Assembly (NCBI GenBank): GCA_036874045.1
Contig: CM072343.1
Location: forward strand, 13,846,001 to 13,910,000
Origin: Cymodocea nodosa
Taxonomy: Eukaryota; Streptophyta; Magnoliopsida; Alismatales; Cymodoceaceae
Direction of reading: 5' to 3'
DNA length: 64,000 nt
A program made the translations under genes and the position numbers. The notes beneath the pieces were generated by a model. It was not told where the DNA came from. It made no database searches and saw only the letters and a program-made list of their open reading frames with translations. Shown in pieces: positions 13,651-39,643 of the stretch; position 1 is the stretch's first letter, and each line of letters starts with the position of its first letter.

Positions 13651-14819
13651 TTAGCCTCTATTCCTAAGTTCATCTACTTCCTTCTGGAGTTTTTCTAATT
13701 GTTGCTCTAATTGATTAATCCTCTCTACGGCTCTTGTAATGCCTCTAGAAGGTGTAGCAATTTCTGCAGCTACAAAATTTCTGTACTCTTTCACTAAAAT
13801 GGTTCTTGATTTGATCCTTTTTGATGCCCATTTAGTGAAATCGATACAATCCACCATCAGTAGTGGAATCAAATCTCCATAAAACAATTTTTTCTTTATT
13901 GTTCTAAGCTTGGAGATAAAAACAGCAGACCAATTTATTTGAATTCTATTTACAACTGCAAACGTGGCTCATTTGACAAATTGACTCAGTTCTATGTCAT
14001 GGCCTTGTCGTTGATAGACATTCTTAATCAAAAAGTTAGCTATCATGTGTGCTTTACCATTTAAATGCTTCAGTCTATTTAATGAAGGCACACTAGGATT
14101 TATAGCCAAATTGTCCTTGATTTCTTGTTCTGTCCATTCAACGGTAGTTGTACTTTCTAATATTTCCTGTCCTTCATTCTTCAATCCAAAAATGTTGTGG
14201 AGAAGCTCTAGTGTTATTTGTACATCAGCTTCCTCCACGTTGGAAATTAATCCTCCTTCTCCTTCTCTTAAATTTGCATAAAAACAAGGCACTAGATTCT
14301 CATATATTGCATGCCCTCTTTCTTGAGAAATAAAATTCAGTAGACCTTGGAATTCAAATAATTCTTTGATTTCATGCATTCCGTCCCTATTTACTGGTCT
14401 ACTGTATATAATATCATAACTTCTAATCTCTTGGTATTTAATATAAGCTTCCTGACTCCAAAAATGTACTTCATTTAAAATTGTTGCTTCAGTTGGGTCA
14501 GGAATTTGACTTTGTTGTTCTAAAGGGGTTTGTTCTTGATCTTCCTTTACATAGGCTGCACTTGAACATGTTCAACAGATTCCTGAATTTTTGCTTCTAC
14601 TTTTGTCTGTGGTGGTGAGCCGGTAGAACTCTCCACTCTATCTTGAATTCTTTCCATAAATTGCTGAAGAGTTTCTTGCTCTTCAATGGAATCTGTAAAG
14701 TCATTTTTGTCCAAATGGCTTCGTTCAGCTTCTTCTTCATTTTCTATTCTTTCTTCTCCCTCTTGACTACCAATTTGCATTGTCACTATTCTTTCTAATT
14801 CTATGGAAGATTAGGATGG
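13651..14819 (-). pseudogene. GyA ORF3, C-terminal two-thirds (plant transposon protein domain)
   Basis: The accessory ORF downstream of integrase. Motifs in order: an acidic segment (EEERIENEEEAERSHL type text), SQEAYIKYQEI, KELFEFQGLLNFISQ, PCFYANLREGEGG, HNIFGLKNEGQEI, then after a stop NRIQINWSAVF, KLFYGDLIPLL, and a C-terminal leucine-heptad coiled coil (INQLEQQLEKLQKEVDEL) ending near 13654. This matches what I know as the putative plant transposon protein family found downstream of pol in Athila and similar elements. Breaks: stop or frame change near 14545 and a stop at 13969. The homologous protein sits in the copia element CoA (30216-32504) and in GyC. A solo LTR separates it from its upstream part. 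Confidence 0.75.
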
Positions 14820-14824
14820 AGTCA

Positions 14825-16627
14825 TGTTTAGAATGAAAAAGTGTATATTATTAACGGTTAAATGATGGTTAATTGCATAATATTTAGCTTATCATATGAG
14901 AATTAAGCCATTATGTTATAATTGCACTGTTATATGCTTTAATTGAAGAATCTGCTTAATTTTCAGGAATTAATGTTAATTTAGTACATTTATGAACTGT
15001 CGGTAAGTTGCAGGCTATGAAATTCTTAAGTATCTGAAAATGCATCTGAGCATTGGATAGTTATACCTGTAACTCTCCGAAATGTTATTTTATGTTTAAA
15101 CTACTGCTGATACGTGTTGAGATCTGGTAGATTTACTTAAGTTATAACTCATTAAGTTAACATAACTGCACGCGTTGAGTTACATGAATATACACTAAGG
15201 TAACGCGTTAGGTTAGCGGCTTATTTCTTAATTGCATGTATTTTATAGTTATTTTCCAAAATGCCACTATAGCGGTTGCAGGAACAGATAGTTGGAAGGA
15301 AAAACCACGTTTGCATGTATCACGTAGGAATTCAATTGCGCATGGAGAAGGAAGCATTGCCGTTGATCTGAAGGAAGGAAATCCAACCGATCATTCAAGA
15401 AGAAGTAGTTACTACTGAAGAAATATAAAAGAAAAGAAGAAAAAAAGAAGAAAGTGTGATCGATGGACGGCCAGTGTATACAGAGGAGGAGCACTGAGCT
15501 TTCTGCAGACAGTATCGGCGATTCTCTGAAGTATCACACCAACCATCGTTATCACCACCATAATCACCAATCATCGGAGGTCTGTGAGGATACTTGCCTG
15601 GTGTTGGGTCGATTCTAAGCCAAACACAATGCCTGACAACCACTGTGAGGAGTGATCGCGTCGCGAGAAGGGAAGACATTTTCACCAAGCGCCGACTCAT
15701 GTTTTAGGAGATCGTAAAGCTTTTAGCCTTGGCTTCGGGTTGATGCCTATATGCTGAAGAGGAGATCATCTTGCAATTTTGGACTCGCGATTCTATAGGG
15801 AGAGGAGACAGAATTTTAAGTGGTTTAATTTTTAGTGGTGTAATCGCGTTGCAAGTAGTGTCGGAAGTATTTACTGTCAAGTGAGATTACTTTACATTTC
15901 ACCTTTCACCCATTTCCATGTTCACATCAAAACAAAAATACCAAAAACAATTTATCTTTTTTTGTATGTTGTATTTGAGTGTTGTATTGTTTGTATTGTA
16001 TCGTAATTAATGTTATCTGTATCAGTTTTATGATTGTTTTATGTTAGTTTTAATTTTATAGTTTACTGAAATTGGTTCGTACAAAAAACTTAAAGATTTT
16101 AATGGTGACTGTTTGAATCATCTGAATGTTAGTATTGCTTAATGATAAATCCAATGTTAACTAGCATTAAAAAGCTTAATTGATGTTATTTACAATCTGT
16201 GGAATTGCCCAATGGTTGGCCGAATTCCTCTGTAAATAGCAGTATTATAAAGAAGAGACAGGCTCGTGGAGTTAACTTAAGTCCACGAGGATAGTCCGTT
16301 GAGTTAGCCATAACTCAACGAACTTAGTCCGTTGAGTTAACTGTAACTCAACGAAGTGCTTATTGAATATAAATTTGAATTGTTCACAATCAAACATTTC
16401 TTAAATTCGTCAGCAATTCCCTGTGGGATCGACCTGTACTTGCACAATGATACAATAGACACTATGCACTTGCAGTTAAAGTACAAATTGGAATTAATAT
16501 CTAAATTGTATTAAAGGTTGTTTGTTTACTTCTAAAAGAAAGAATAGGCATAAAGATAAATTAACTAAGTAAAAATAGAAGTAACAAATCCAAGTTTTTC
16601 TAGTGTAGTGCTGGGAAAACCCAAACA
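14825..16627 (+). mobile_element. solo LTR inserted in GyA ORF3
   Basis: This 1803-bp LTR begins TGTTTAGAATG, ends AAACCCAAACA, and has perfect AGTCA duplications (14820-14824 and 16628-16632). It is in the opposite orientation to GyA. It contains the U3 dyads, a TATA box at 15422-15430, the GTTGAGTTA cluster (about 16260-16355) and the conserved LTR block (about 16430-16490). Taking it out rejoins the ORF3 text on both sides. Confidence 0.92.
15422..15430 (+). promoter_or_regulatory. TATA box of the Athila-family LTR
   Basis: AATATAAAAG in a purine-rich context. The same string is at the same relative place in the GyC 5' LTR (53734-53742) and, inverted, in the minus-strand LTRs. It marks the likely U3/R boundary some 30 bp downstream. 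No transcript data are available. Confidence 0.5.
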
Positions 16628-16632
16628 AGTCA

Positions 16633-16990
16633 CGGGCACTTCAGTTTCTGCCCTAATTTCTGTTTCTTCTTCTTGTACAGGTTGCAGACTAATTTCAGCC
16701 TGTTTTTCTTCTTCTCTTTGCTCTTGCTGCTACTGCTCCTACTTCTCCTCAGAATCAGATAGCAAGTTTATAAAAATTGGTTCTACAGGTCCTTTTGATA
16801 TTGGTACTTCAAATTTAATCTCCTTTTGACACTCAGGCACTCTCTTTTCCTTTCCTTCGTGTGATTAATTGTGCGTGGTCTTCCTCTTCTTCTTCTAAGA
16901 TTAAATCTAAAACAAAGGCTCTACATGCCTTTGAGCCACAGGTACTGGCTCTTCTCTAACCAACTCTTGCTCTCTCATCCGCAATCTTAG
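16633..16990 (-). pseudogene. GyA ORF3, N-terminal remnant with SUMO-interaction-like motif
   Basis: Minus-strand text EEPVPVAQRHVEPLF, GPVEPIFINLLSDSEE and QPVQEEETEIRAETEVPV matches the better kept ORF3 of GyC (58070-58400). The hydrophobic-acidic motif FINLLSDSEE resembles a SUMO-interaction motif. Several stops and a frameshift break it. About 600 bp of upstream ORF3 that GyC keeps is missing here. Confidence 0.65.
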
Positions 16991-17372
16991 CTATAGTACT
17001 CCGTTGAGTTACAGTTAACTCAACAGAATAAGCTCAATGACTAACTCAAGTCTCAACGAAGTAAGCTCGTTGAGTTAAGCGTAACTCAACGAACTTCACG
17101 TACAAACAGATATAATAATAAAAATACTTAAGATAATAGTTTTTCTATTTTTTACCAGTTTAACCGATACTATGTTTCGATCAGACCTAATTTTTTTCCC
17201 GATTGAACCGATACTATGTTTTGGTAAAACCAAAATTTTTTTTTTACTAAAAATTAATATAGATATTTTATGTTTCGGTCATACCGATGGATCTGGTCGT
17301 TTGAACCGCAACGATTTTTATATTTTATAATTTTTTTTTATATATAAAAATAAAATAAAAACTGATTTCTTA
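16991..17372 (-). other. spacer between integrase and ORF3 with dyads and repeats
   Basis: No coding sequence. From 16996 to 17098 there are three GTTGAGTTA/TAACTCAAC pairs. From 17155 to 17320 two copies of AACCGATACTATGTTT (about 17162 and 17207) are followed by inverse-like text and poly-T, which looks like a small MITE-like insertion or a local duplication. I cannot define its ends. Confidence 0.4.
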
Positions 17373-18606
17373 CTAAGTAAAGCTCGAGTAGTCCTCTACT
17401 CTGACTTCTCCTATAATTCCAAAGGAGCTTTTTGGTATTTTCAGAATAGGTCTAAGTCTTTGTCCATTTACTTTAAATATATTCTGATTTTTAGGATTTT
17501 CAATCTCAATAGCTCCATAAGGATAAATATTTTGAACTATATAAGGTCCTACCCATCTAGATCTTAATTTTCCTGGATGGTTATGGAGTCTAGCCATATA
17601 AAGATATACTTCTTGTCCTATTTCGAAGCTTTTTGGAATAATTTTCCTATTATGCCAGAATTTCATTTTCTCTTTTTCTCTTACAATCTTCGAATAAGCT
17701 TCATTTCTAAATTCTTCTAATTCCATTAGTTGCATTTTTCTATTTTCAGAAGTTTGATTTAAATTAGTATTTAGAGTTTTTAATGCCCAATAAGCTTTAT
17801 GTTCTATTTGAGTAGGAAAATGATAAGTTTTTCCATATACTAGCCTAAAAGGTGACATACCTAAGCTTGTCTTATAAGCAGTTCTATAAGCCCAAAGTGC
17901 ATCTATCAATCTATTAGCCTAATCTGTTCTAGTAGGATTTATTACTTTTTCTAAGATTAACTTAATTTGTTTGTTAGCACTTTCTACTTGTCCACTTGTT
18001 TGCAGATTATATGATGTTGCAATTTTGTGGTTTTACTCCATATTTCTTCATTAAGGCTTCAAAACTTCTATTACAGAAATGAGTTCCTCTATCACTGATA
18101 ATAGGTTTAGGTATTCCAAATCTAGCAAATATATTGGTTCTTATAAATTGTATTACCACTTTGTTGTCATTAGTTTTTGTAGGAATAACTTTTATCCATT
18201 TAGATACATAATCCACCCCCAACAATATGTAATTAAATTGATTAGACATAGGAAATGGACCCATAAAATCTATTCTCCACACATCAAAGATTTCAACCTC
18301 AACAATAGGATTAAGAGGCATCATATTCCTATTTGATATTCTTCCTATTTGTTGACATCTTAAACAACTTAAGCAATATTTATGAGCATCTTTGAATAGT
18401 GTTGGCCAATAAAATCCACATTGCAGAATTTTTGCAGTAGTTTTCCCTGAACCAAAATGCCCTCCACAAGCTTGGTCATGACAGAAAGACAATATGCTTT
18501 GATATTCAGTTTCTGGAAGACACCTCCTTAAAACCAGATCAGGACATTTCGTAAATAAGTATGGGTCTTCCCAATAGTAATATTTTACTCTTGAGAAAAA
18601 CAATTT
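17373..18606 (-). pseudogene. GyA integrase
   Basis: Integrase inserts the cDNA copy into the host chromosome. The N-terminal HHCC zinc-binding part is visible (FCHDQACGGHFGSG ... YCLSCLRCQQIG), then the core: first Asp in VWRIDFMGPFP, second Asp in IISDRGTHFCN, and the Glu in SGQVESANKQ, which lies in a shifted frame after about 18010. The C-terminal part (FEIGQEVYLYMARLHNHPGKLRSRW, then GPYIV) is the usual GPF/Y region. It ends at 17373 with no chromodomain, as expected outside the chromoviruses. A frameshift near 18010 and a stop near 17910 break it. Confidence 0.9.
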
Positions 18607-18669
18607 CTTATCCTGTCTATTCCAATCCTTAGGTGTTAAACCAGTAACTAAGTAATTAACTATGTCTGC

Positions 18670-19110
18670 ATACTAAGGTATTGTGTTGATGGTCATTAAT
18701 TGTTCATCAAGAAAATTATCCTTAATTTCAATATTTGATTTTTCTATTTGTAATCTTGATAAATGATCTGCTACTACATTCTCACAACCTTTTCTATCTT
18801 TAATTTCTAGATCAAATTCTTGTAATAATAATATCCATCGGATCAATCTAGGCTTAGTCTCTTTTTTTGCTATTAGATGTTTTAAAGCTGCATGATCCGT
18901 GCATACTATTACTTTAGCTCCAATCAGATATGATCTAAACTTTTCTAAGGCAAACACAATAGCTAATAGTTCTTTTTCAGTAGTTGTGTAATTAACTTGA
19001 GCATCATTTAAGGTTTTGCTTGCATAATGAATCACTCTAGGAGATTTTTCTATCTTCTATCCCAACACTGCTCCTACAGCAAAATCAGATGCATCGCACA
19101 TTAATTCAAA
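18670..19110 (-). pseudogene. GyA RNase H domain
   Basis: Ty3-type RNase H that degrades the RNA strand during reverse transcription. Visible motifs: LMCDASDFAVGAVLG with the first catalytic Asp, [16 protein letters not shown] with the Glu, [13 protein letters not shown] with the next Asp, and VADHLSRL at the end. A stop (TAG) after VLG at about 19056 and a stop at 18673 interrupt the frame to integrase. Confidence 0.9.
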
Positions 19111-20200
19111 TGGATGGCTCCAATCAGGTACTTGAATTATAGAAGTTGAAATTAAGCTAGTTTTATGTCTGAAAAATACTTCCTTGCAATTTTTATCAAA
19201 GTTGAATGGGACATTTTTTAATACATTAGTTAAAGGACTAGCTATTTTGCTAAAGTCTTTAATAAATCTTCTATAAAAACGAGCATGTCCTAGAAATGAT
19301 CTAATATCTTTTACTAATTTAGGTTCTAGTAGATTAGAAATTACTTCTATTTTAGCTTTATCTACTTCCAACTCTTTCTTTGAAACAACATGCCCTAAGA
19401 ATATTCCTTGTTTAACCATGAAGTGACATTTTTCCCAATTTAAAACTAGATTTTTTTCCACACAACGTTTTAATATTTGGTCTAAATTGCTTAAACAAAC
19501 TTCATATGAGTTGCCATATACAATAGAATCATCCATAAATATTTCTAAGAAATCTTCAGTCATTCCAGTAAATATGCCTTGCATACACCTTTGAAAGGTA
19601 GCTGATGCATTGCATAATCCAAATGGCATTCTCTTAAAAACATAAGTTCCATTAGGACAGATGAAAGTTGTTTTCTCTTGATCCTCTAATGCCACTGGAA
19701 TTTGATTATAACCTGAATCCCTGTCTAGGAAACAAAAATATTCTTGCCCTGCTAATCTTTCTGCATTTGATCTATAAAAGGTATGGGAAAATTATCTTTC
19801 CTAGTCACAACATTCAACTTTCTATAGTCTATACATACTCTCCAGCATGATTGAATTCTAGTAGGTATCAAGTCTTGACTTTCATTCCTAATAACTGTTA
19901 ATCTTGATTTCTTGGGAACTACATGGATTGGGCTACCCCACGAGCTATCAGAAATTAGATAAATTATGTCATTATCTAACCATTTCACTATTTCCTTCTT
20001 AACTACTTCTTTAAGATTTGGATTTAATCTCCTCTCAGGAATTCTAACAGGTTTAGCATTCTCTTCTAAATATATGTGGTGACAGCATAAAGTTGAACTT
20101 AATCCTTTTATATCAGTCATAGTCCATCCTATTGCTTCTTTATAACTTTTTACTAAATCTTTTAATTTAGCTATTTGATCCTCTTTTAAATCTGAAGCAA
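19111..20200 (-). pseudogene. GyA reverse transcriptase
   Basis: RT copies the element RNA into cDNA. The order of motifs is typical of Ty3/gypsy: HVVPKK, WRVCIDYRKLNVVTRKD, FPIPFIDQM, then in the next frame TYVFKRMPFGLCNASATFQR, the catalytic FMDD (in LEIFMDDSIVYG), CHFMVKQGIFLGHVVS, and the thumb/connection SFLGHARFYRRFIKDFSK. FMDD rather than YVDD agrees with the Athila lineage. A frame break lies around 19700-19755, after IDQM. Confidence 0.92.
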
Positions 20201-20900
20201 TAATGATTGGACAGCTTCGTTTCTCTTTTAGAAATATATAGGTTAATTCAGGAGGTAAAAGTTTTAATTCTAAATGTTGCCCATCAGAAGCAAGAGCTCC
20301 TAATTGAACATCATCATTTTCTAAATTAATTTCTTCTAGATCTCCTTCTATATTTATGCTTTCACTTTCCTCTAAAGTTTCAGAATTGATTTGCCTATTT
20401 AATTCTTCTTGAATCACATCATCTAACATATCTCCTTTATCCTCTAAAAAGTCTATGGTATGTAAGGACATTTCTAATTCCTCAAACCTTTCTGGTTTGA
20501 AAATATTTAATTGAGTATCCTCATTACCATATGCTAATTTCATTTCTCCAGTTTTACAATTTATAACAGCCCCTGATGTTGCTAAAAATGGCCTTCCCAA
20601 AATTAAAGATGTATTACTATTTTTATGCTTAATTTGTTGGGAATCCAAAATTACAATATCAATAGGATATATAAAGTTTTTGATTTTAAATAAGACATCC
20701 TCTATTTTTCCTCTAGGGTATCTTATACTTCTATCAGCTAATTGAATAACCGTACTAGTAGGAGTTAAGCCTTCTAATCCTAAGGATGCAAATATATCAC
20801 TTGGCATAACATTTATACCTATACCTAAGTCTATTAAGGTTCTTTCTAGAATGGTATTTCCTATGGTGCATGATATAATAGGGATTTCAGGTTCAGATAA
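20201..20900 (-). pseudogene. GyA aspartic protease region
   Basis: Retropepsin-like protease that matures Gag-Pol. SCTIGNTILERTLIDLGIGI contains the active-site D-L-G, followed by INVMPSDIFASLGLEGL, QLADRSIRYPRGKIEDVL and LILGRPFLATSGAVINCKTG. In the Athila lineage the catalytic triplet is usually DLGA; GyC has DLGADIN, while GyA reads DLGIGIN, so the Ala after the triplet is lost. The frame is open from 20807 into RT. Confidence 0.88.
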
Positions 20901-22019
20901 CTTTTTAGGAATTTGTGGCAGAAATAGGGAACTACTTTGCTCAGCTAAATAGACCTTTCTAAGAACTTTTCACTCTCTTTTCTTAGTACACCAATCCTTT
21001 AGAAATTTAGCACAAGGTGGCATTTTCTACAATAGATCTAACAAAGGAATGTTAACTTATACTTTTTCAAAAATTTCTCTGATTTTTTCTTATTTTTCAG
21101 GTATTGTTTGTTGTAATCTTTTAGGATAGGGTGCTAAAGATTGTGATTTAAAAGATTCTTTTTCTTTCAGTTGATTTGTTTGATCATTTTTAGCTTCATT
21201 AGCAGATTCAGATTGTTCTTCAATGATTTGTAGATTTTCAACTATTACATTTTCATTATCATTTTGATTTTTACTCTTATCCACCTTCATATTATTTTCA
21301 TTTTGAGCTCTTGATGGTATATCAGTTTCAGATCTTAATGTTATACAAACATCTTCCAGATTTTCGTTACTCTCATGATGTTTTTGTATATCATTTTCGT
21401 GATTATGATCTTCAATTGTTTTTAGTTTTAAAGTGCATTCTTTAAATTCTCTTGCATTAATATTTTCTGTTTGCTGTATATTTTGCAAATTATGCAGATA
21501 TATAACATTATAATTTTCGTTGTCCTATTGCATAACTTGTATTTTCATTGTATATTCGTCTAATGCTTTTAATTTTCTTTCCAGATCATCTAATCTCATT
21601 GCATTCAATTTTTGATCAATTTTCATTATGGTTTTTTCAATTTCATAAATTATATCCATTTTAGGTTATGAATATGCTTCCTTATAGTTTAATTGGTTGA
21701 CTTCTTGTTGTTGACACATGAAGTATTCTATTTTGTCTAGGTTTTGCTCTATACTATGCTCCAGTCTATCATACCTATCCTAAACTTCCGTGTCTCTCAA
21801 CATATCACACATTCTATACTGACCATCAGTTGGGTAAACTATAGGATTCTCATACTCGGCTTTATTATATTGAGGATAATTCATTTGTTGTTCATGGGAT
21901 CTAACCATCTACAAATGTCTCAGTTTCAAACAGTCAGAAATGTCAAGACCTTCAGAATTATAGAATTCACATATACTAACTACAGGTTTCAAAAATCTTT
22001 GAGCATAAGCATATGCCAT
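20901..22019 (-). pseudogene. GyA 5' gag remnant with zinc-knuckle-like motif and acidic linker
   Basis: The first ATG after the primer site (22019) starts MAYAYAQRFLKP and soon gives CEFYNSEGLDISDC, a CCHC knuckle with exact spacing but Tyr for the second Cys and, in this copy, Leu for the His. Then come charged coiled-coil text and an open frame 21488-21090 (HESNENLEDVCITLRSETD), equivalent to the ITLRSGK gag-protease junction of Athila. Several stops occur between 22019 and 21490. The capsid domain expected before the knuckle is absent here; it is found at 11361-12702. GyC has the same shortened 5' end, so this layout is shared. Confidence 0.75.
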
Positions 22020-22094
22020 ATTCTCAATTACAGAAGAAAACACACAACTCTAGCTATTAAAATGAAATAGCTTTAATAGTTGCTTATATTAATT

Positions 22095-22111
22095 CCCCAA
22101 CAACGGTGCCA
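22095..22111 (-). other. GyA primer-binding site (tRNA-Asp)
   Basis: On the element strand TGGCACCGTTGTTGGGG differs by two C-to-T or G-to-A type changes from TGGCGCCGTTGCCGGGG, the complement of the 3' end of plant tRNA-Asp. It lies 7 nt inside the LTR end. Both visible losses are at CpG or C sites, as expected after cytosine methylation. Confidence 0.85.
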
Positions 22112-22118
22112 TAAAACT

Positions 22119-24085
22119 TGTTCACTTGGCTAGCATGACACTAGAAAACTTGGTTGGATCTCCAGCAACGCCCTAGAAAAACTTGGATTTGTTAACTTTT
22201 GTTTTTACTTAGTTAATTTATCTTTATGCCTATTCCTTTTTTTAGAAGAAAACAAACAACCTTTCACACAAATTAGATATTAATTCCAATTTGTGTTTTA
22301 ACTGCAAGTGCACAGTGTCTATTGTATTAGTGTGCAAGTACAGGTCGATCCCATAGGGAATTGCTTAAGAATTGAGAACTGTTCCATTTTTAACAATCAA
22401 ATTTATATATTCAATAAGCTCTCCGTTAAATTACAGTTAACTCAATGGACTAACCTCGTGAACTTAAGTTAACTCCACGAGCCTGCATTTCCTATTTAAT
22501 ACTGCTATTTACAAAGGAATTCGGCCAACCATTGGGTGGTTCCACAGATTGTAAATAACATCAATTAAGCTCTTTAATATTAGTAAATATTGGATTTATC
22601 ATTAGGCAATACTAACATTCAGATAATTCAAACAGTTACCATTAGGCAATACTAACATTCAGATAATCACGATACAAAACAAACAACACAACACTCAAAT
22701 ACAAAATACAAACATAGATAAATTGTTTTTGATATTTTTGTTTTAATATGAACATGGAAATGGGCGAAAGGTGAAATGTAATGTAATCTCAGTCTATAGT
22801 AAATACTTTCGTCACTACATGCGATGCGATTACACCACTGAAAATTAAACCACTTACAATTCTTTCTCCTCTCCCTATAGAATCACAAGTCCAGAATTGC
22901 AAGATGATCTCCTTTTTAGCATGCGGGCATCAACCCGAAACCAAGGCTAGAAGCTTTACGATCTCCTGAGATATGAGCCGGCGCTTGGTGAAAATGACTT
23001 CCCTTCCCGCGACGTGATCACTCCTCACAATGGTTGTCAGGCACTGTGTTTGGCTCAGAATCGACCCGACATCAGGAAAGTATCCTCACAGACCTCCGAT
23101 AGTTGGTGATTATGGTGGTGGTGATGTGGTGGTGATAATGGTTGGTGTGGTACTTTAGAGAATTGCCGACACTATTTACAGAAAGCTCGATGCTCCTCCT
23201 CTATACACATTGGCCATACCCATCGATCACACACTCTTCTTTTTCTTTTTTTTCTTTTATATTTCTTCAATAGTAACTACTTCTGCTTGAATGGTCGGTT
23301 GGATTTATTTCATTCATATCAACGATGATGATTTCTTCTCCCTATGCGATACATGTGATTGTGGTTTTTCCTTCCAACTATCCTGTTTTTGCAACCACTA
23401 CAGTGACATATAAGAAAATAAATAGTCCGTGGAGTTACAGATAACTCAATGGACTTACCTCGTTGATTTAACTATAAAACACATGCATAAATTTAACTAT
23501 CCGATGCTCAGGCGCATTTCAGATACTTACAAACTTAACTATCCGATGCTCAGATGCATTTCGGATAGTTACAAACTTATCGATATATAACTTAAGTAAA
23601 TCTACCAGATCTCGACACATGTCATCAGTAGTTTAATAATAAAAGAAACATTTCGGAGAGTTACAAGTCTAACTATCTGATGCTCAGCTGCAATTTCGGA
23701 TAGTTATAGATAACTCACCGAAAGTTCACTTAAGTCATGCATTATGGTTTCGACACGTGTACTTCAGGAAATAATAAAATATTCTTTTAAAGCATAACTG
23801 TTCGGCAATTTAAACATAACTATCCGATACATGTTCGGTATGTTAAACATAACTATCCGAAATATCAGAAAATTTGGATACTTAAGGATTTCATAGCCTA
23901 CAATTTACTGATATTTCAGAAATATACTAAATTAACATTAATTCACCGAAATTAAGCAGATTCTTTAATTAAAGCATATAACAGTGCAATTATAACATAA
24001 TGGCTTAATTCTCATATGTAAGTTAAATATTATGCAATTAACCATCATTTAACCGTTAATATTATGCACTTTTTCATTCTAAACA
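22119..24085 (-). repeat. GyA 5' LTR
   Basis: A 1967-bp LTR with plus-strand ends TGTTCACTTGG and ATTCTAAACA. It aligns by eye with the 3' LTR 3910-4897/7110-8216, with many transitions and two visible deletions (part of the dyad cluster near 22440 and about 90 bp near 22640), so the insertion is old. It contains the conserved LTR block at about 22300-22363. Confidence 0.9.
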
Positions 24086-24163
24086 AGTTATCTTTAAAAT
24101 GTTAGTGATTTTCAGACTAACTCATTCTAGGATGTTGCCAAAGTCAGATATAGGAATAGTGTG
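24086..24163. other. flank between GyA and a solo LTR
   Basis: These 78 bp start with the AGTTA target duplication of GyA and end with the GTGTG duplication of the next solo LTR. The sequence is the older host or Tat-like DNA seen also at 3613-3904 and 26022-26485. Confidence 0.6.
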
Positions 24164-26016
24164 TGTTCGTGTTTTCCCAGCACTACACTAGAAAAACTTG
24201 GATTTGTTACTTCTATTTTTACTTAGTTAATTTATCTTTATGCCTATTCTTTCTTTTAGAAGTAAACAAACAACCTTTAATACAATTTAGATATTAATTC
24301 CAATTTGTACTTTAACTACAAGTGCATAGTGTCTATTGTATTAGTGTGTAAGTACAGGTCGATCCCACAGGGAATTGCTGACGAATTTAAGAAATGTTTG
24401 ATTGTGAACAATTCAAATTTATATTCAATAAGCACTCCGTTGAGTTACAGTTAACTCAACAGACTAAGTTCATTGAGTTATGGATAACTCAACGGACTAT
24501 CCTCGTGGACTTAAGTTAACTCCATGAGCTTGTCTCTTCTTTATAATACTGCTATTTACAGAGGAATTCAGCCAACCATTGGGCGATTCCACAGATTGTA
24601 AATAACATCAATTAAGCTTTTTAATGCTAGTTAACATTGAATTTATCATTATGCAATACTAACATTTAGATGATTCAAATAGTAACCATTAAAATCTTTA
24701 AGTTGTTTTGTACAAACCAATTTAAGTAAACTGTAAAATTAAAACTAACATAAAACAATCATAAAATTGATACAGATAACATTAATCACGATACAACACA
24801 AACAATACAACACTCAAATACAACATACAAACAAAGATAAATTGTTTTTGGTATTTTTGTTTTTATGTGATGGGCGAAAGTTGAAATGTAAAGTAATTTC
24901 ACTTGACAGTAAATACTTCCGACACTACTTGCAACGCGATTACACCATTGAAAATTGAACCACTTACAATTCTGTCTCCTCTCCCTATAGAATCGTGAGT
25001 CCAGAATTGCAAGATGATCTCCTCTTAAGCATACAGGCATCAACCCGAAGCCAAGGCTAAAAGCTTTACGATCTCCTAAAATATGAGTCGACGCTTGGTG
25101 AAAATGTTTTCCCTTCCCGCGACGCGATCACTCCTCACAGTGGTTGTCAGACACTGTGTTTGGCTCGGAATCGACCTGACATCAGGCAAGTATCCTTATA
25201 GACCTCCGATGATTGGTGATTATGGTGGTGATACGATGGTTGGTGTGATACTTCAAAGAATCGCCGATACTGTCTGCAGAAAGGTCGGTGCTCCTCCTCT
25301 GTATACATTGGCCATCCATCGATCACCTTTTTTCTTTTTTTCTTCTTTTCTTTTATATTTCTTCAGTGGTAACTACTTCTACTTGAATGATCGGTTGGAT
25401 TTCCTTCCTTCAGATCAACGACGATGATTTCTTTCTCCCTACGCGATTGAATTCCTGCATGATACGTGCGAACGTGGTTTTTCCTTCCAACTGTCTGTTC
25501 CTACAACCGCTACAGTGGCATATTAGAAAATATATAGTCTGTGGAGTTATAGATAACTCAACGGACTTCCTTCATTGATTTAACTATAAAACACGTGCAA
25601 AAATAACAACTTAAGTTTATAACGCTAACCTAACGCGTTGCCTTAATGTATTTTCATGTAACTCAACGCGTGCAGTTATACTAACTTAACGAGTTATAAT
25701 GTAAGTAAATCTACCAGCTCTCAACACGTGTCAGCAGTAGTTTAAACATAAAATAACATTTCGGAGAGTTACAGGTATAACTATCCGATGCTTAGATGTA
25801 TTTTCGGATACTTAAGAATTTCACAGCCTGGAATTTACCGATAGTTCATAAATGTACTAAATTAACATTAATTCCCCAAAATTAAGCAGATTCTTCAATT
25901 AAAGCATATAATAGTGCAATTATAACATAATGGCTTAATTCTCATATGATAAGCTAAATATTATGCAATTAACCATCATTTAACCGTTAATAATATGCAC
26001 TTTTTCATTCTAAACA
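24164..26016 (-). mobile_element. solo LTR of the GyA family
   Basis: This 1853-bp LTR has plus-strand ends TGTTCGTGTTTTCCC and TTCATTCTAAACA, with perfect GTGTG duplications (24159-24163 and 26017-26021). There is no internal region. The dyad cluster at about 24436-24530 is one of the best kept: three successive GTTGAGTTA/TAACTCAAC or GTGGACTTA/TAACTCCA pairs. The plus-strand open frame 25083-25427 is antisense to the LTR and is treated as incidental. Confidence 0.92.
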
Positions 26017-26021
26017 GTGTG

Positions 26022-26485
26022 CAAAACAATTCTAAAAAATTTCCAGAAACACGCCATTGGTGTAATAATCATAACTCAATCAAATCTCAAGGAAACACCA
26101 TGAAATCAACACACCTTGAAAGTTAGTTCTTGTTCTAACAAGGAAAATTTACAGAAAACCATTTTGAAGCAAACAAAAGTGAAGTAACATGAAGGCGTCG
26201 AGCACAATTTCTAATGCTGGACTAGAAAAATTGAATAGATGCTTCCTTCGAAATATAAATCTAAAAATTGAAGAAATACATTCTTAAAAATTCCAAAAAC
26301 ACTACAGACGTATTGTACACTTGAAGTACTTCAAGAAAAGCTATAACACGACATATAACTTAGAGAAATCGAATCATACAACATATAACAAATTAGAGCT
26401 CATATTGTAATTTACAACAAGATATACACACATTCACAAGGGTTAGGAGTTAGTTTTATGCACAACATTCACACATTCACATGAA
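26022..26485. other. non-coding flank between two solo LTRs
   Basis: No open frame and no motif I recognise. It is continuous in origin with 24091-24158 once the solo LTR is removed, and is probably part of an old Tat-like LTR. Confidence 0.4.
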
Positions 26486-26490
26486 GCAAC

Positions 26491-27513
26491 TGTAAGAGTT
26501 AAAACCGATCGTTTAATCAATGCACTATGGCACAATTCTGAAACACTCACATCTCAACTCACCGAAATTGGGAAGTGAAGAGAAAGAGGAAGAAAAAACA
26601 CTGATGACATAAGATTTACGTGGTTCGGCAATAGCCTACGTCTACAAAGAGTTGGGGATTCTTCTTTGAGCTTTGGCATAATCAACCGCAATGTTTTACG
26701 ACATCATAAAGGTTTATATACTACCCAACTTAGGGTTAATAAACCTTTAATTACACTTGAGCCATTATGGTAGAGAGAAAATGCTTTGGAGAAGGAACTC
26801 TCAATTTCAAAGCTTTATCTTCCTATCTTTCTAAAATCTGTAATACTTTGGATAGTTACAGAGCTTAACTATCCAAAAAAAATTCTTCTTTCTTCATTTG
26901 TCGTAACGGGCGGTACTGTAACATGCTAACTGTCTGGAGAGATTCGGTCTTTCAGATAGTTCAAACTTAACTGTCTTAAAACCCACTTACGTCTCTCTCA
27001 GTCCATTCGGAAGGTTCTACCATTAACTTTCCAAAAACTGCTTGTCTTTCGAATAGTTACTATCTTAACTATCCGAAAACTCACTTAAGTGTCTCTTCGG
27101 TCACTTCGGAAGATTATAGTTGTAACCTTCTAAAAAACTCACGACTTTTGGATAGTTACTGCCTAACTATCCGAAGATCTACTTAAGTCCCTGTCTTTCA
27201 GATACTTAGCTTCTTAACTATTCGAACATTCACTTAAGTGTTTGACTTTCGGATACTTAGCTTCATAACTATTTGAACATCCACTTAAGTGTCCTCTAAG
27301 TCGTTCCAGATGGTTACAACCAGTAACCCTCTGAAATCTCCTAGCTTTCGAATAGTTAGCTCAAAGCCTTCTAACTAAAATGTTATTTTAGATACTTCGA
27401 TCTAGTAACCTTCAGAAATCATAAATCTACTAGAGACTTACTGCTAACAAGCTTTTGACAAAACTTGGACTTCTTGTGGCATACTCCACACACCTGTACT
27501 ACTCTCCCTAACA
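26491..27513 (-). mobile_element. solo LTR, family with GGATAGTTA repeats (copy 2)
   Basis: A 1023-bp homologue of 1851-2842 in the opposite orientation; plus-strand ends are TGTAAGAGTT and CTCCCTAACA. Flanks are GCAAC (26486-26490) and ACAAC (27514-27518), one mismatch. It carries the same chain of GGATAGTTA/TAACTATCC dyads with cacttaagt spacers, from about 26840 to 27400. Confidence 0.82.
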
Positions 27514-27840
27514 ACAACCATATTCCACGAGATCTAATCTAAAACAACTATTTAAATTAAAGAAATAGACATTTAATAAAGATCCTAAATGTACATACAT
27601 TCATAAATCCAAAATCCCTAAATACTCATACACATATGATATGAAAATGAGAATACAAGTATGAGGATCTCTCCTCTCCAATATACCTTTAAGTTTTCCA
27701 CCTTCCTTCAAGTAAGAGCTCCCTTTCGACCTTGAATCATGTTAATCCACTACACCACAGGGCTGTCATCACCTATAACATGTTCAAAAGAGGTCTTCTA
27801 GGGTTTCCTTGAAGTGGTGGTTGCTTGTTCGGAGTTTACA
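27514..27840. other. unassigned AT-rich flank
   Basis: About 330 bp between a solo LTR and the Tat-like LTR start. No coding sequence or repeat identity is evident. Confidence 0.4.
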
Positions 27841-28102
27841 TGTTATGAAATTAACACACAACTGAGTTTTAATATTTATAACCGCAAGCGCATGGAGTCA
27901 ATTATAGAAAGCATGTAAGAATGGGTTGAATCCACAAGGACCAGCAATTAAACATAAAATTCACGAGAGTTTATAGATATGCCTTGTGTAAATGCATTCT
28001 CATCACATGTTTGCCTTAACAATCATGTGTATGTTAGAAATGACTTCATATAGAGTTGAATTAGTAATGAGAAACCTCATTCATGTCCCCCTCTATCCAT
28101 CA

Positions 28103-29715
28103 TGTAGGATCGTATGGCTACACAAGAGGGGGGTGAATTGTGTATTTTTAATATTTTCTGAAATATAATTGAAACTTTAAAACTCAAAAACAAGTCGAGA
28201 CATTGTTTTCATAAAATCATTTTTATTCAAGGTTTCAATTACAATATACAATTCAATTCTCCTCAGAAATTGTAGATGCAATTATATTTCGATACCATGT
28301 ATCATCTAAACAATTTCATAACTACAAATAGAGAAAACTAATTTGCGAAATTTAAAACTTTTCTCCCTATTTGAGATCTTTCTTCTTCTTCTTTTTCTTC
28401 TTCAGCAATTCTTCAGTGACGAATATCTTGTCTTTTCATGCTTCACCGAATTTGATTTCTTCTGATACTTCAAATCTTCAGTGATGAAAATCTTACCTTT
28501 TTATGCTTCACTGAACTTTCTTCCACTTGAGAGATTTTCCCCGAGAAGGTGTTTTTCATCCTTGAAAAAGATTTTTCTTTTGGTGTGTAGGGATGGTTTG
28601 ATCCTTGAAAAGATTTTTCGTTTTGTGTGCAAGGATAAATTGATCAACAAGAATTCTATGCCTTTTATACTGTATCTTCATTTCATGCATATCCTTCACG
28701 TTTAACCACCACCAGTTTTCCACTTCTCCACGTCTTTTCTTTTTCCTTCATCGAAACACACACGTTCTAACCCACGTTTATATTTCGAATTTTCTTTAAT
28801 CATCAGTCCTGGATCTCTGAAAAATTTCCTGCAAAATAAACTTTCTCATCCAAAAGTTTTTCATTAGTGTAATAAGAAGTCGTTACTTTAATGTTAACTA
28901 AACGAGTAACACAAGTATATATATAACTTAACGTTTCTAACTTAACGAGTTCCTCATGTGCCATTTCACGTGACAAGTACTGTAGCTAAGTCAACGAACC
29001 ATCTCCGTGGTGTTATGATATCTCAACGAACCATCTCCATTGTGTTATGATAACTCAACGAACCATCTCCGTTGTGTTATGATAACTCAACGAACCAGAA
29101 ATAAACAAATGTTTTTATAATAAGAATTTTGCCACGTGCAAAAATAACAACTTAAGTTTATAACGCTAACCTAACGCGTTGCCTTAGTGTTCAATATAGC
29201 AACTCAACGCGTTTAGTTATGTTAACTTAATGAGTTAAACATGTGCACCTCACGTGATACAATATAACATTCGAAACTTATAATTTAACCACGTGTATAA
29301 CACTAACTTAACGAGTTCGTCTCTTCTTTTACTCACTAACTTAACAAGTTATCACGTGACCTATTTTAACCTTTAAGCCTCTAACCTAACGAGTTCTCAC
29401 GTGACCTCTATACAAACAAAACTCTAACTTAACGAGTTGTCTAAACGTGCACTGTTCATGATACAGAAGATATAACATTAAAACATATCATGCTTTTCAA
29501 TAAAAACACACGTTAACTTAACGTTTAGCTAAATGAGAAATTAATGCAACGAAACGACTTGTTATTAACTTCAGATCCAATACAAACAAGTATTTATATG
29601 AGTAAGCTTTTTCTGTATTAATTGATGATTTTAATTTCTTTTCACAAGCAATAGTAATTGAGCAAATATGATTATTTTCATTCAGCACACATCATCAAAA
29701 CAAAAATACTCAACA
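28103..29715 (-). repeat. CoA 3' LTR
   Basis: Plus-strand ends are TGTAGGATC and TACTCAACA. It holds several CACGTG (G-box) sites, many TAACTTAACGAGTT-type dyads, and a tandem array of a 32-bp unit starting at 28991, 29023, 29055 and 29087, each unit containing TCAACGAACC and TTGTGTTATGAT. On the element strand a TATA box (TATAAAAGG) lies near 28661-28670. Confidence 0.92.
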
Positions 29716-29731
29716 ATCTCCCCCTTTTTGA
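29716..29731 (-). other. CoA polypurine tract
   Basis: On the element strand TCAAAAAGGGGGAGAT abuts the LTR start TGTTGAG. This is the usual copia polypurine tract for plus-strand priming. Confidence 0.88.
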
Positions 29732-30215
29732 TGATGACAAAACCATATTAAATCAATTATGAAACATGTATAACTCAACAAGGCACCTTCGTTGGGTTAA
29801 CTTTTAATTCAACAAACTTGTTTGTTGACTTAAGTTCACTTAAGCTTATTTCTATTGTTTGTGTAAATTTTACCTCTTAGAACTAAAACTCTCAAATGTC
29901 AATAATTATATAAGTATCAGTTTTCTAATTATCATCTGTTAGATTACTATAACCATTTAAATATCATCTCCTTTTATAATATATATATGCAATTAAGATC
30001 ATAATCATCTTTTTATAATATTTCTCCCCCTTTTTGTCATTAATCAAAAAGATAATTACAAAGAATATATATACATATATAAGAGATATAATTACAACAA
30101 CTCTTTCTGTAAACAAGAATAATAATTAAAGACATTTATAGAAAAATGTATTGTTCAATGAATCAAATAAGTAATACAAACATTACATTTTGTATTCAGA
30201 AACAAACAAAAACAG
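29732..30215 (-). other. CoA spacer with a second polypurine-like tract
   Basis: Non-coding. A second copy of the tract (AAAAAGGGGGAGAAA on the minus strand, 30021-30036) lies about 300 bp upstream of the terminal one. A GTTGGGTTA/TTAATTCAAC pair is near 29790-29815. Confidence 0.55.
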
Positions 30216-32504
30216 TTAGCGACCCCTCCTAAGTATATCACTTATAGCATTACATATTTTATCTCCTAGATGTCTAATGTCATTTCTGATGTCGTTAAGC
30301 ACTACATCTAAGTCAGGAGGTAGCTGGGTTTGCTGTTCTGCTTGAACTGAATGACTTTGTTGTTGTTGTTGTATATGGTCTGTATTAGGTTGTTGTTGTT
30401 GTCGTTGAGGTTTATGCATGGCCTGAAATTTTTGCAAATCTTTGATACTAAATGCTCTCATGCCTTTAGTTTTAGAGGGCCAGTCGGATAAATTCAATTG
30501 GCTTGCAATGAGTCTACATACAGCATCACCATAAAATAACTTTGAACTCATATGCTGTAGTTGAGAACTGAAAACATCAAACCAATTGATTTGAATTCTA
30601 TTCAGCAAGCTATAAGTTGCATATAAACAACTTCTGCTGACTTCCATATTGAGTCCAACTCTCTGAAATAAATTTGCATGCAATATATTTGCAATAAACC
30701 TTGCCTCTGCATTCAGATTTTCCATTAATCTCATTTCAGAATATACATCTGGAATTTTTGATAAAGACTGAATGTTCCATTTCAGTTGTCTTATCATGTC
30801 AAATCTGTTGGTAACAACAACACCTTCATTCTTTAATCCTAAAACTTCAAAAATTAACTAAGGAGACAATATAAACTCCTGTTCATTTATTTGAGTTTTA
30901 AGAAAAATTCCATTCTTGACCAGATTACTATAAAAAGCTACAATAAGCTCTGTGTATTGCTTCCATTTCGGTCCTACTGGCAAGAATTTAATGAGGCCTT
31001 GAAACTCAAATAGATCTCGTATGTCCATCAAATTTCTAAATTTTATTGGACGAGCATGTAGAATCTGACATGTAATCAGATTATTGTATTTCTGCAATGC
31101 TTCTTCAGATCTAAAATGAATTGCATTACTTTGAATTTTTAATATTGTACACAAAGAAGGTGATACCTGAAGCCGTGATTCAGAGTTTAATTCATCTTCA
31201 GGAACCTCTTCTTCAAAATGAATGCCATGTTGTTCCTCTTCCAAAATATTATCTTGAAGCTGCTTAGGTAAGCTTGATTCTTCAGCTTCAACAGTGTTAG
31301 GAACATTGTCAATATGCACAACATTCATCTGTTCAGTCTCTATAGAATGTTCAGAGTACAATTTTTCCACAAATTCTACAACCGATATATCTGCCAGGAA
31401 TTGTTCATTTTGTTCAACAGATAATTCCATTGATTCATGTTGTGAATTCTCAAACTCTGCTTCTATAGATTCCGTAGAAGGTTGGTTAACTTTTAGCTCT
31501 TCTAGAGTCTTAACAATTTCAATATCTGCTACTCCAGACAATTCAGCCTTTGAACTAGTTACTACCTCAACATTGTCAATTATATCTGCAATAACTTGTT
31601 CAATGTCAGGTGCCTGATGCTCTGATTTGTCAATTTCTACATCATCAGGACTTGTACTAATAGAAAAACTTGAGCTTATATTTGACTTGGATTTCTTCTC
31701 AAGCTTTCTAGCAAGGGAAAATAAAGTCTCATTATCTTCATCAGTTTCAGTGTGTTCGGAACTGATGAGTTTATCAGATGCACAAAAAGGTACAATGTCT
31801 AGACATACATTGTCCTTTGAAAATAAATTTTCATCTGATTTTCCTTTTTCAATAGACTTTGTTTCCTTAGACATAATTTTTCTGACTTTCCTTCTTCTGT
31901 AACATTTTTGTTTCTCCTTTTCAAGTATTACTGTTTTCTTTTCAAATTGCTCCATAAAAGTTTTCTGCTTTAATTCTTCTAAGGCACTTTCTATTGCAAC
32001 GGCATTTCGAAGACTATCAACTTTTCTTTTGTCTACAGCAATATCTGATTCTACTTGTTTTGAATATAAAGGAGTAGGGATAGCTGATTCATTCTCTTCC
32101 TCAAATGCATGTAGTCTTGTACCATTTATAGGAGTTTAAGGAGTTCTATTTGATGAACCTACACCTTTTTCCAAATATTTTGCATACTGTTCCAAAAATA
32201 CAATCTCAGCACATTTCATTCTGTATTCTCTATCATATTTACTTCGAATACCCATGTATGTAATACTTGCATCAGTATGTTGAAGTTCTTGTCTAACTTC
32301 ATCTAATATATCCTGAGAAAAGAAGTAATCTCTATCAAGTTCTTCTAACCTTTTGTCCACTCGAAATATTTTCTTGAACCAAGTACGTGGAACTTCATAA
32401 TTCTCTATTTCTTTTCCTTTTGCATCTCTTCTACTTTTGCCTTTTCTTCTGCCACGACCTTTGTAGAACTTGGAGACCATCGTCGCAGGTTGTAACAACA
32501 ACAA
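30216..32504 (-). pseudogene. CoA ORF3, homologous to the gypsy ORF3
   Basis: A single frame of about 762 codons interrupted by only two in-frame stops (32136-32138 and 30858-30860). The N-terminus is basic (YKGRGRRKGKSRRD), suggesting nucleic-acid binding or a nuclear signal. A long acidic, low-complexity middle follows. The C-terminal third has MDIRDLFEFQGLIKFLPVG, VAFYSNL, LGLKNEG, NRIQINWFDVFSSQL, SSKLFYGDAV, a Gln-rich stretch and a terminal NAISDILRRGR. The words FEFQGL, FYxNL, GLKNEG, NRIQINW and KLFYGD occur in the same order in the Athila-type GyA ORF3. In SIRE elements the ORF after pol has been called envelope-like; I see no signal peptide or clear membrane segment here. I therefore call it the plant transposon protein family, function unknown. 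Confidence 0.8.
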
Positions 32505-32999
32505 GCGGGAAAGATTTTCTTGACAAAGTTTACAAATAACCTAAGTCCCCGTGTTATAAGTGTTTAAATAGGGTTTTTAGGCGTATAACTCAACGTGAAG
32601 ATAAGTCGGGTTTAGAAATAAAATAAATATTGAATAAAGTTTATTCAATCAAGGTACCCGAAATATTCAAGTATAACTCATTGAGTTAACTAACCTAACG
32701 AGTAAAACGCTGTCTAGAGGCAGTTTTACACGTTACCTTATCTAACATAACGTCTAGTTAGTATACTTAAACAAGTTTTGGATGCTTCCAACTAAAACGT
32801 TCTGAAAACAACACACATGCTAAAACTTAACATTATCTTGAGAACATAGTAAACTATTTGAACATTTTGTCCTTTGAATCTAAAATAGTTTATTTGTCTT
32901 TTTAAATTATTTCATCAAGATTTTAAGAGGACATTAAATCAAATTAACTAAAATTTGTATTTTAAATTATTTTAATCTTTTTTTTTTGACATTGTTAAT
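32505..32999 (-). other. CoA leader region before ORF3
   Basis: Non-coding. Near 32670-32705 it contains ACTCATTGAGTTAACTAACC and ACGAGT text, the same dyad vocabulary as the gypsy spacers and LTRs, so it may act as leader for ORF3. No promoter is proven. Confidence 0.4.
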
Positions 33000-35868: not shown

Positions 35869-35996
35869 GTCATCATTATCAGCTTTAGATTGAGATTCTC
35901 TAAGAGAATTTTCATTGAAGCTTACATGGAGGGTTTCTTCAATAGTCCTAGAAGTTTTGTTATATACTCTATACGCTTTACTTCTAGTAGAGTAAC

Positions 35997-36850: not shown

Positions 36851-37451
36851 CTTTTCTTTTAGCAATAAACTAAATTCCATCTTTATTTTTATCAATTATT
36901 TTGCATACATTATCTTCAAACACTACATAATATCCATTTTCAGTTAGTTTTATGACACTCAGCAAATTAAATCCTAGGTTTTCTACATATAGTACATTCT
37001 AAATAACACAAGTAGGAGTTATTTGAACATTGCCCATACCTATGATTTTATCTTTGCTTTTGTTTCCAAATGTTACACTTCCTTTCATGGTATTTGTAAA
37101 ATTTTGTAATAGACTTTTTTGTCCGGTCATGTGACTTGACGCTCCACTGTCCAAGATCCATTTTGATGTTGTTTCCTCCTGCAACACAAATTAAGAAAAA
37201 CTTTTTCTTGGTACCCAATGTTGTTGAGGACCAAGTTCATTAAATGCATATTTCTTCTTTTTGTTTAAAAATAGTTTAACATTAACATTTATATTCTTAT
37301 TAGTTGTAAGTACTATTGATTTATCATTAGCTTCATACTCACATATAGCATTATTGCTTTTGCAATCATTCTTTTTGTTTTCAGATGTAGTATAATCAAG
37401 ACCAAACATATTTTTATCAGATGTTAATTTATTTTGGTCATGCTTATGCAT
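36851..37451 (-). pseudogene. CoA protease region
   Basis: WILDSGASSHMTGQKSLL at about 37100-37160 holds the DSG active site of copia retropepsins. The frame is interrupted by a stop at 37191 just before QEETTSKWILD, at 36999 after TPTCVI, and near 36870. Upstream text 37451-37191 (LDYTTSENKKNDCK and NELGPQQHWVPRK) is the Gag-protease linker. Confidence 0.85.
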
Positions 37452-39443: not shown

Positions 39444-39629
39444 TTTACCTTAGATTTTTCAACCTATTTGATTTTAAACAGTCTAAAAACTTTAAAATAA
39501 CTTGAGCCTTAAATCAATAGAGTTAAACGTATGCTCAGATATTAATTTCTATTTAAAAACAAGGAAGGTAGAATAAGCAATGATATTAAATAAGTTGGTA
39601 TCGATTTTATATCAAGGATTATTAACGAT

Positions 39630-39641: not shown

Positions 39642-39643
39642 CT

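What the first reader, a model, noticed from the sequence alone, without database searches (positions are those of the whole stretch)
13651..32504. Homologous ORF3 in a Ty3/gypsy and a Ty1/copia element of the same window
Seen: GyA ORF3 (13651-14819) and CoA ORF3 (30216-32504) share, in order, FEFQGL, FYxNL, GLKNEG, NRIQINW and KLFYGD, although their pol genes belong to different superfamilies (integrase after RT versus before). Known: accessory ORFs after pol occur in Athila and SIRE. Inference: exchange of this module between superfamilies, or repeated capture of a common gene.
Basis: partly seen in the sequence, partly recalled or inferred. Interest (0 to 1): 0.85.

Follow-up and report, generated by a model that had tools for sequence, protein, structure and literature searches.

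The report
Accessory gene shared by unrelated retrotransposons
Two kinds of plant jumping genes whose core enzymes are too different to align carry clearly related copies of the same extra gene, which suggests that such elements swap parts with each other.

Summary
ORF3 of a Ty3 element (GyA) and of a complete Sirevirus-type Ty1 element (CoA, 28103-41254, TSD CATCA) are homologous: 36-39% identity in three collinear blocks (59, 39, 60 bits), significant profile-profile scores, and no other piece among 1,283 in the window at E<=1e-3. pol proteins of the same elements reach 22 bits at best. ORF3 is not markedly slower than pol: between two Ty3 copies dN/dS is 0.21 for the ORF3 core, 0.32 for protease/RT start. 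Descent from the common ancestor of the superfamilies therefore fits badly.

A third copy lies at 57686-59122. All three are broken.

Co and Gy families also share non-coding DNA: about 1 kb of linker (72-75%) and an LTR U3 segment (87% over 105 nt), but in Gy copies other than GyA and GyB, so each segment has its own history. I favour repeated exchange between co-resident lineages. Independent capture of a common gene is not excluded: no plant genome could be searched and no tree was possible.

The parts
13651..14819 (-). GyA ORF3, conserved core and C-terminus (pieces 13972-14571 and 13651-13968; N-terminal piece 14547-14810 in another frame)
14825..16627 (+). solo LTR of the Gy family inserted in GyA ORF3, TSD AGTCA at 14820-14824 and 16628-16632
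16632..16955 (-). upstream part of GyA ORF3, matched by GyB 58078-58398
17376..20969 (-). GyA pol: protease-like (weak), RVT_1, RNase H, integrase (integrase after RT); several frame breaks
22122..24085 (-). GyA 5' LTR (lower edge approximate)
28103..41254 (-). CoA, Sirevirus-type Ty1 element complete from LTR to LTR; TSD CATCA at 28098-28102 and 41255-41259
28103..29715 (-). CoA 3' LTR (97.2% identical to the 5' LTR, K2P 0.029)
39644..41254 (-). CoA 5' LTR; PBS TGGTATCAGAGC at 39630-39641
34075..36869 (-). CoA pol: gag_pre-integrs, rve, then RVT_2, with an RNase H-like end piece 34075-34359 (by eye, not Pfam-scanned)
30216..32540 (-). CoA ORF3, one frame with two in-frame stops; first ATG at 32480
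29718..29725 (-). Sirevirus PPT octamer AGGGGGAG starting 10 bp before the 3' LTR (others at 30024-30031 and 33001-33008)
58405..59122 (+). GyB ORF3 core (third copy), frames broken
57686..58435 (+). GyB ORF3 N-terminal acidic region, downstream of a truncated RT (57041-57424)
32984..33970 (-). CoA linker module between pol and ORF3, shared with GyC 8378-9440 and GyD 48985-49960
29133..29237 (.). Co 3' LTR U3 segment shared with Gy LTR 25592-25696 (86.7%; 54 nt exact)
8378..9440 (-). same linker module in GyC, just before the Gy-type LTR
48985..49960 (-). same linker module in GyD

Best explanation
ORF3 is a post-pol accessory gene that passed between an Athila-like Ty3 lineage and a Sirevirus (Ty1) lineage long after their pol genes had diverged. 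Likely route: both RNAs in one cell, mixed packaging and template switching during reverse transcription, so that post-pol and LTR segments are swapped while gag-pol stays with its lineage. Linker DNA and a U3 segment were swapped in other events. The protein probably has an acidic, fast-changing N-terminus with basic clusters, a conserved core of about 200 residues and a short C-terminal helix, and acts as a soluble, probably nuclear helper of the element rather than as an envelope. Shown here: homology, the contrast with pol, the shared non-coding segments, no membrane helix in the six pieces scanned. Inferred: direction, route, nuclear role.
For: ORF3 blocks 37.5%, 35.5% and 38.7% identical (59.3, 39.3, 59.7 bits) against 21.9 bits at best among pol pairs; only ORF3 pieces hit among 1,283 pieces; hhalign probabilities 94.9, 97.4 and 97.7%. 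GyA-GyB, in-frame pairs only: ORF3 core 81.9% amino-acid identity, dN 0.088, dN/dS 0.21 (127 codons); protease/RT start 87.9%, dN 0.059, dN/dS 0.32 (380 codons; RT start alone 0.23, 57 codons), so constraint is of the same order. CoA has LTRs, TSD and PPT octamers on both sides of ORF3. Shared non-coding DNA: linker 72-75%, K2P 0.32-0.35; U3 segment 86.7% over 105 nt, K2P 0.15; motif AACTCAACGAGTT 56 times against 2.2 expected, in both LTR families and elsewhere. GyA-CoA ORF3 dS is near saturation (4.6), so the segments differ in divergence.
Against: Three ORF3 copies, all broken, from one 64-kb window plus one short fragment (P0001). No tree was possible. Relative to dS the ORF3 core is not faster than pol (dS is 0.414 against 0.184), and pol was compared only over protease and the RT start. 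No one Gy element shows more than one shared segment: GyA and GyB have ORF3, GyC and GyD the linker, and the U3 segment is in 4 of 8 Gy LTR stretches tested, not in the LTRs of GyA or GyB. The linker lies before ORF3 in CoA but next to the LTR in GyC and GyD. Direction is unknown. Structure models were too poor to use (mean pLDDT 40.5 and 45.5).
Confidence: 0.53

Rival explanations
1. Repeated capture: both lineages independently took up members of one plant gene family (perhaps PF20167-like), and the gene never moved directly between elements.
For: Elements can capture genes; in this window an F-box ORF lies between a Ty3-type gag piece and Gy LTRs, with a related second copy. PMC6317226 (passages) reads eORF diversity as independent acquisition from several sources.
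Against: No host version was found, but no plant genome could be searched, so this is weak. Capture does not explain the shared linker and U3 DNA.
Confidence: 0.3
2. Vertical descent: ORF3 was present in the common ancestor of Ty1 and Ty3 elements and was kept.
For: Same position after pol in both elements. Relative to dS the ORF3 core is about as constrained as, or a little more than, protease/RT start.
Against: pol proteins of the same two elements are barely detectable by BLASTP (21.9 bits at best) while ORF3 gives about 60 bits. For descent ORF3 would have to be far slower than RT and integrase; between GyA and GyB it is not (81.9% against 87.9% identity).
Confidence: 0.06
3. Artefact: ORF3 of CoA is a piece of a Ty3 element nested in it, or the elements are misassembled.
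For: The window is full of nested LTR insertions.
Against: CoA has matching LTRs (97.2%), a TSD and PPT octamers flanking ORF3; the two ORF3s are only 36-39% identical, far apart for a recent nested insert; a 91%-identical relative of CoA ORF3 exists in another record (P0001), whose own context is unknown.
Confidence: 0.03
4. ORF3 is a retroviral-type envelope gene in both elements (a question of function, compatible with exchange).
For: Post-pol sense position; such ORFs are called env-like in print (PMC7264820, PMC3414828).
Against: No 19-residue stretch above 1.06 on the Kyte-Doolittle scale in six pieces scanned (the usual cut of 1.6 is recalled). Not scanned: the N-terminal pieces of GyA and the core pieces of GyB.
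Confidence: 0.07

Closest known systems
Athila post-pol sense ORF with a Transposase_32 (PF20167) domain, sunflower Athila 14 (PMC11728184, passages)
   Same: Ty3 Athila-type element, ORF in sense in the 3' part, partial PF20167 match; predicted nuclear with a basic NLS
   Different: Reported there for Athila; here a relative of the core also sits in a Ty1 Sirevirus, and the PF20167 scores are far below the curated cut-off
Sirevirus env-like proteins: SIRE1, ToRTL1, MtRetro3 (774 aa), LjRetro3 (793 aa) (PMC4093653, passages)
   Same: Position between pol and the terminal PPTs; CoA frame of similar length (about 755 codons from the first ATG, stops included)
   Different: No Ty3 relatives of these proteins named in the passages read; MASiVEdb (PMC3414828, passages) describes transmembrane and coiled-coil domains, and no membrane helix was seen here. 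CoA ORF3 was not aligned with these proteins (none at hand)
Bdelloid rotifer ORF3s shared between LTR and Penelope-like retroelements (PMC5408684, passages)
   Same: The same accessory ORF type in unrelated retroelement classes of one host, read as gene sharing
   Different: Animal host, enzymatic ORFs (GDSL, DEDDy) with known relatives
Palindromic repeat (RM) boxes of Sirevirus LTRs and of the region upstream of ENV (PMC2829016, section 9)
   Same: Palindrome-like repeats mostly in the upper half of the Co LTR, and one about 200 bp upstream of the CoA ORF3 ATG
   Different: Motif AACTCAACGAGTT lacks the CGG-CCG core; here the segment is shared with Ty3-type LTRs, whereas RMs were reported absent from classic copia elements

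Membership tests
Sirevirus / SIRE (CoA) | Ty1 order: integrase before RT | tested here: met
Sirevirus / SIRE (CoA) | AGGGGGAG PPT exactly 10 bp before the 3' LTR, with several copies in the linker | tested here: met
   three copies in the window, all in the CoA linker: 29718, 30024, 33001; criterion
Sirevirus / SIRE (CoA) | PBS complementary to tRNA-Met | tested here: met
   39630-39641, exact; the 12-base pattern is recalled
Sirevirus / SIRE (CoA) | RT falls in the SIRE clade | not tested
   no reference set at hand
Sirevirus env-like protein (CoA ORF3) | transmembrane domain | tested here: not met
   hydropathy of the three CoA pieces, maximum 0.91; pieces apart, no dedicated predictor
Athila, Ty3 (GyA, GyB) | Ty3 order: integrase after RT and RNase H | tested here: met
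   GyA only; GyB lacks everything after part of RT
Athila, Ty3 (GyA, GyB) | no second RNase H and no chromodomain | tested here: inconclusive
   none in the five GyA pol pieces scanned; piece 17376-17918 gave no Pfam match at all, and 17375-16632 was not scanned
Athila, Ty3 (GyA, GyB) | RT falls in the Athila clade | not tested
   no reference set at hand; 'Athila-like' is by elimination and recall
PF20167 Transposase_32 | score above the curated cut-off (45 bits) | tested here: not met
   2 of 9 ORF3 pieces matched at all: GyA 19.8 bits (E 8e-4), CoA 13.3 bits (E 0.075, and only second best for that piece)
PF20167 Transposase_32 | collinear match along the profile | tested here: inconclusive
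   GyA 79-190 to profile 7-117, CoA 47-103 to 96-151: within about one position of the register of the BLAST alignment
retroviral envelope | membrane anchor | tested here: not met
   six pieces

The most novel reading that the evidence does not exclude
Post-pol accessory genes of plant Sireviruses and of Athila-type elements are in part one gene family, traded back and forth between the two superfamilies, as are linker and LTR control sequences, so that the region from pol to the 3' LTR is a common pool of parts rather than lineage property.
Probability: 0.33. Interest if true: 0.8.

Novelty: new variant of a known kind. Interest (0 to 1): 0.6.

Why it matters
The origin of the env-like genes of plant Sireviruses and of some Ty3 elements is called unknown in print (PMC3414828, passage). 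Large surveys describe these ORFs as heterogeneous and of several sources (PMC6317226, passages), or found 15 extra domains in Gypsy and none in Copia elements (121 angiosperm genomes; PMC9289625, section 12; that chart leaves out ATHILA domains). A homologous core in both superfamilies gives a testable alternative: one family that crosses superfamilies. It would also mean that control DNA of LTRs can pass between unrelated elements in one genome.

Tried and rejected
Homologue searches: the search for homologous proteins with CoA (50 candidates) and GyA (85 candidates) gave none at E<=0.001; with alignment A5 1 protein at E<=1 among 2,680 candidates, P0001, 91% identical to CoA ORF3 over 93 residues, 115 aa, no Pfam match, so it adds no third lineage. 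IMG/VR scans with ORF3 and with the two RTs, bacterial and archaeal genomes and plasmids: no relative. PDB by sequence: nothing below E 0.7.

Structure: two AlphaFold2 jobs on pieces gave mean pLDDT 40.5 and 45.5, so no fold search was run.

RNA structure of the conserved linker core: z -3.9 in CoA but -0.4 and -0.8 in GyC and GyD; other strand of CoA -1.1. Not claimed. No Rfam or tRNA match in the window. The linker module has no long open frame (longest 72 codons over three copies and six frames).

Relative rates: a first count with mixed-frame pairs gave dN 0.121 (194 codons) for the ORF3 core and 0.065 (427 codons) for pol, which I first read as ORF3 being the faster gene. In-frame pairs only give 0.088 and 0.059 with dS 0.414 and 0.184; I dropped the claim.

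Alignments A1-A3 placed fragments badly in part; A5 and A4 were used for folding. A9 was not used.

Literature: ten paper searches listed no paper that I recognised as reporting Ty1-Ty3 homology of these ORFs. This is no proof of absence: subscription papers, supplements and Pfam's own family page were not seen. PMC1142308 (passage) says that only the env-like proteins of Calypso and Cyclops-2 appeared homologous.
Full report
What is there. The window is a nest of LTR retrotransposons from what looks like a plant genome (organism not given; inferred from the element types). CoA is a Ty1 element on the minus strand, whole from LTR to LTR, 28103-41254, with LTRs 28103-29715 and 39644-41254 (97.2% identical, K2P 0.029), a 5-bp duplication CATCA at 28098-28102 and 41255-41259, a tRNA-Met-type PBS, gag, integrase, then RT, and three copies of the octamer AGGGGGAG, all in its linker, the last starting exactly 10 bp before the 3' LTR. 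Those octamers are the published mark of Sireviruses (PMC2829016, section 6). GyA is a Ty3 element on the minus strand: 5' LTR about 22122-24085, then a weak protease match, RVT_1, RNase H and integrase. GyB (+, LTR from about 53463, internal part to 59122) is a related, internally deleted copy in which a truncated RT is followed by ORF3. GyC and GyD are related fragments next to Gy-type LTRs with an F-box ORF, GyC also with a gag piece. 'Athila-like' for the Gy elements is by elimination and recall; no RT tree was made.

The observation. All five motifs are found in order in both ORF3s. BLASTP on separate pieces gives 30/80, 27/76 and 29/75 identities with E 5e-15, 9e-9 and 6e-17. For the first and third block the best of 150 shuffles each gave 23.1 and 22.3 bits, against 59.3 and 59.7 observed. 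In a search of all 1,283 stop-to-stop pieces of at least 25 aa of the window with four ORF3 queries, the pieces at E<=1e-3 were ORF3 pieces only; the GyB piece 58615-58854 reached just 0.0073 with the CoA query. Profile-profile comparison gave probabilities 94.9, 97.4 and 97.7% with E 4.6e-8, 1.5e-11 and 1.4e-12 (E for a single pair, profiles of 1-4 sequences).

GyA ORF3 does not begin at 14819. A solo LTR of the Gy family (14825-16627) with duplication AGTCA lies there; in GyB the flanking sequence runs on without it. GyA's upstream part is at 16632-16955. None of the three copies is intact. A relative of CoA ORF3 without its interruption at that place exists in another record (P0001).

Age of the shared gene. 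Among the pol pieces of the same two elements the best cross-superfamily score was 21.9 bits (integrase, E 0.01), with RT pairs at 20.8 bits or less. Neumann et al. [quoted passage not shown] Could ORF3 simply be slow? Between GyA and GyB, counting in-frame pairs only, the ORF3 core has 81.9% amino-acid identity, dN 0.088, dS 0.414, dN/dS 0.21 (127 codons); protease/RT start has 87.9%, dN 0.059, dS 0.184, dN/dS 0.32 (380 codons), and the RT start alone 0.23 (57 codons). So ORF3 has changed more in absolute terms but not relative to dS; its constraint is of the same order as pol's, not far tighter, which is what descent would need. The pol sample lacks the RT core and integrase, which GyB has lost. 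Why dS is twice as high in ORF3 is not explained. GyA-CoA ORF3 has dN 0.79 with dS near saturation (339 codons in four blocks, one of which, 74 codons of an acidic stretch, is doubtful). So ORF3 looks younger than the pol split, yet old.

Other shared DNA. CoA 32984-33970, between pol and ORF3, matches GyC 8378-9440 and GyD 48985-49960, which lie just before Gy LTRs: 72.4 and 74.4% identity over 968 and 958 sites, K2P 0.35 and 0.32; GyC-GyD 86.2%. About 180 nt inside (33574-33395) are 85-92% identical between Co and Gy. It has no long open frame. The LTRs share a U3 segment: Co 29133-29237 and Gy 25592-25696, 86.7% over 105 nt with 54 nt exact (28 nt exact with the other Co LTR). Of eight Gy LTR stretches tested, four match this U3 region (solo LTR 14825-16627, 24133-26022, 46821-48823, 51370-53462) and four do not, among them the LTRs of GyA and GyB themselves. 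The segment lies among repeats of AACTCAACGAGTT (56 matches with up to 2 mismatches; 2.2 expected), placed much as the RM boxes of Sireviruses are (PMC2829016, section 9) but without their CGG-CCG core. No single Gy element shows more than one of the three shared segments, and the linker is not collinear with ORF3, so each has its own history. By divergence the U3 segment is least, the linker more and ORF3 most diverged; constraint may differ, so this is an ordering, not dates. I read it as repeated traffic between co-resident lineages.

What the protein may be. Of nine ORF3 pieces scanned, two match PF20167 (Transposase_32): GyA at 19.8 bits and CoA at 13.3 bits, both far below the cut-off of 45, and for the CoA piece another family scored slightly better. 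The two matches agree in register to about one position. A sunflower Athila ORF has a partial PF20167 match and a predicted nuclear signal (PMC11728184, passages). None of six pieces scanned is hydrophobic enough for a membrane helix (maximum 1.05). Basic clusters occur in the N-terminal parts of CoA (GRGRRKGKSRR) and GyB (KRRKGKE) but not in the three N-terminal GyA pieces (calling them NLS-like is recall). The AlphaFold2 models, all helical, are too poor to use. I commit, at about 0.4, to a soluble nuclear helper (for example against silencing, or in nuclear steps of replication), with env at 0.07; the rest is open.

Known or new. Post-pol ORFs in Athila and Sireviruses are well known, and PF20167 in Athila is in print. 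In ten paper searches (listed under Tried and rejected) I did not find homology between the Ty1 and the Ty3 genes, or shared LTR and linker DNA between them. Sharing of ORF3 types between unrelated retroelements is published for rotifers (PMC5408684, passages), so the kind of event is known. I rate it a new variant of a known kind.

Limits. One window, three broken copies, no plant genome or protein set within reach, no tree. The choice between exchange and repeated capture rests on the non-coding evidence and stays open.

Noticed in passing
10044-11171 (-) and 48824-51360: An F-box ORF (PF00646, 375 aa) lies between a Ty3-type gag piece (11364-12152, PF03732) and a Gy-type LTR; a second copy shares about 3 kb at 81% including part of the LTR. 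Either a gene captured by an LTR element or a duplicated host gene with an LTR beside it.
   Followed up: partly
54857-57325 and 19654-22121: By eye, GyA and GyB run from the PBS region to protease and RT without a recognisable N-terminal gag, as if both came from a gag-less subfamily; these pieces were not Pfam-scanned.
   Followed up: no
13972-14571 and 58615-59122: Synonymous divergence between GyA and GyB is about twice as high in ORF3 (0.414, 127 codons) as in protease/RT start (0.184, 380 codons); ORF3 and pol may have different histories even among Ty3 copies.
   Followed up: no
33360-33570 (-): Core of the shared linker folds unusually well as RNA in CoA (z -3.9) but not in the two Gy copies.
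   Followed up: partly
32675-32687, 11271-11283, 17064-17095: Copies of the palindrome-like motif lie about 200 bp upstream of the CoA ORF3 ATG, 100 bp upstream of the F-box ATG and upstream of GyA ORF3; could be internal promoter parts.
   Followed up: no
2173-2413, 6381-6741, 26947-27293, 44169-44519: A second repeat type with GGATAGTTA and its complement forms tandem arrays in several stretches, one of them among Gy LTRs.
   Followed up: no
59123-59522: In GyB the ORF3 core is fused directly to an internal part of the Gy LTR, so its 3' end is deleted.
   Followed up: no
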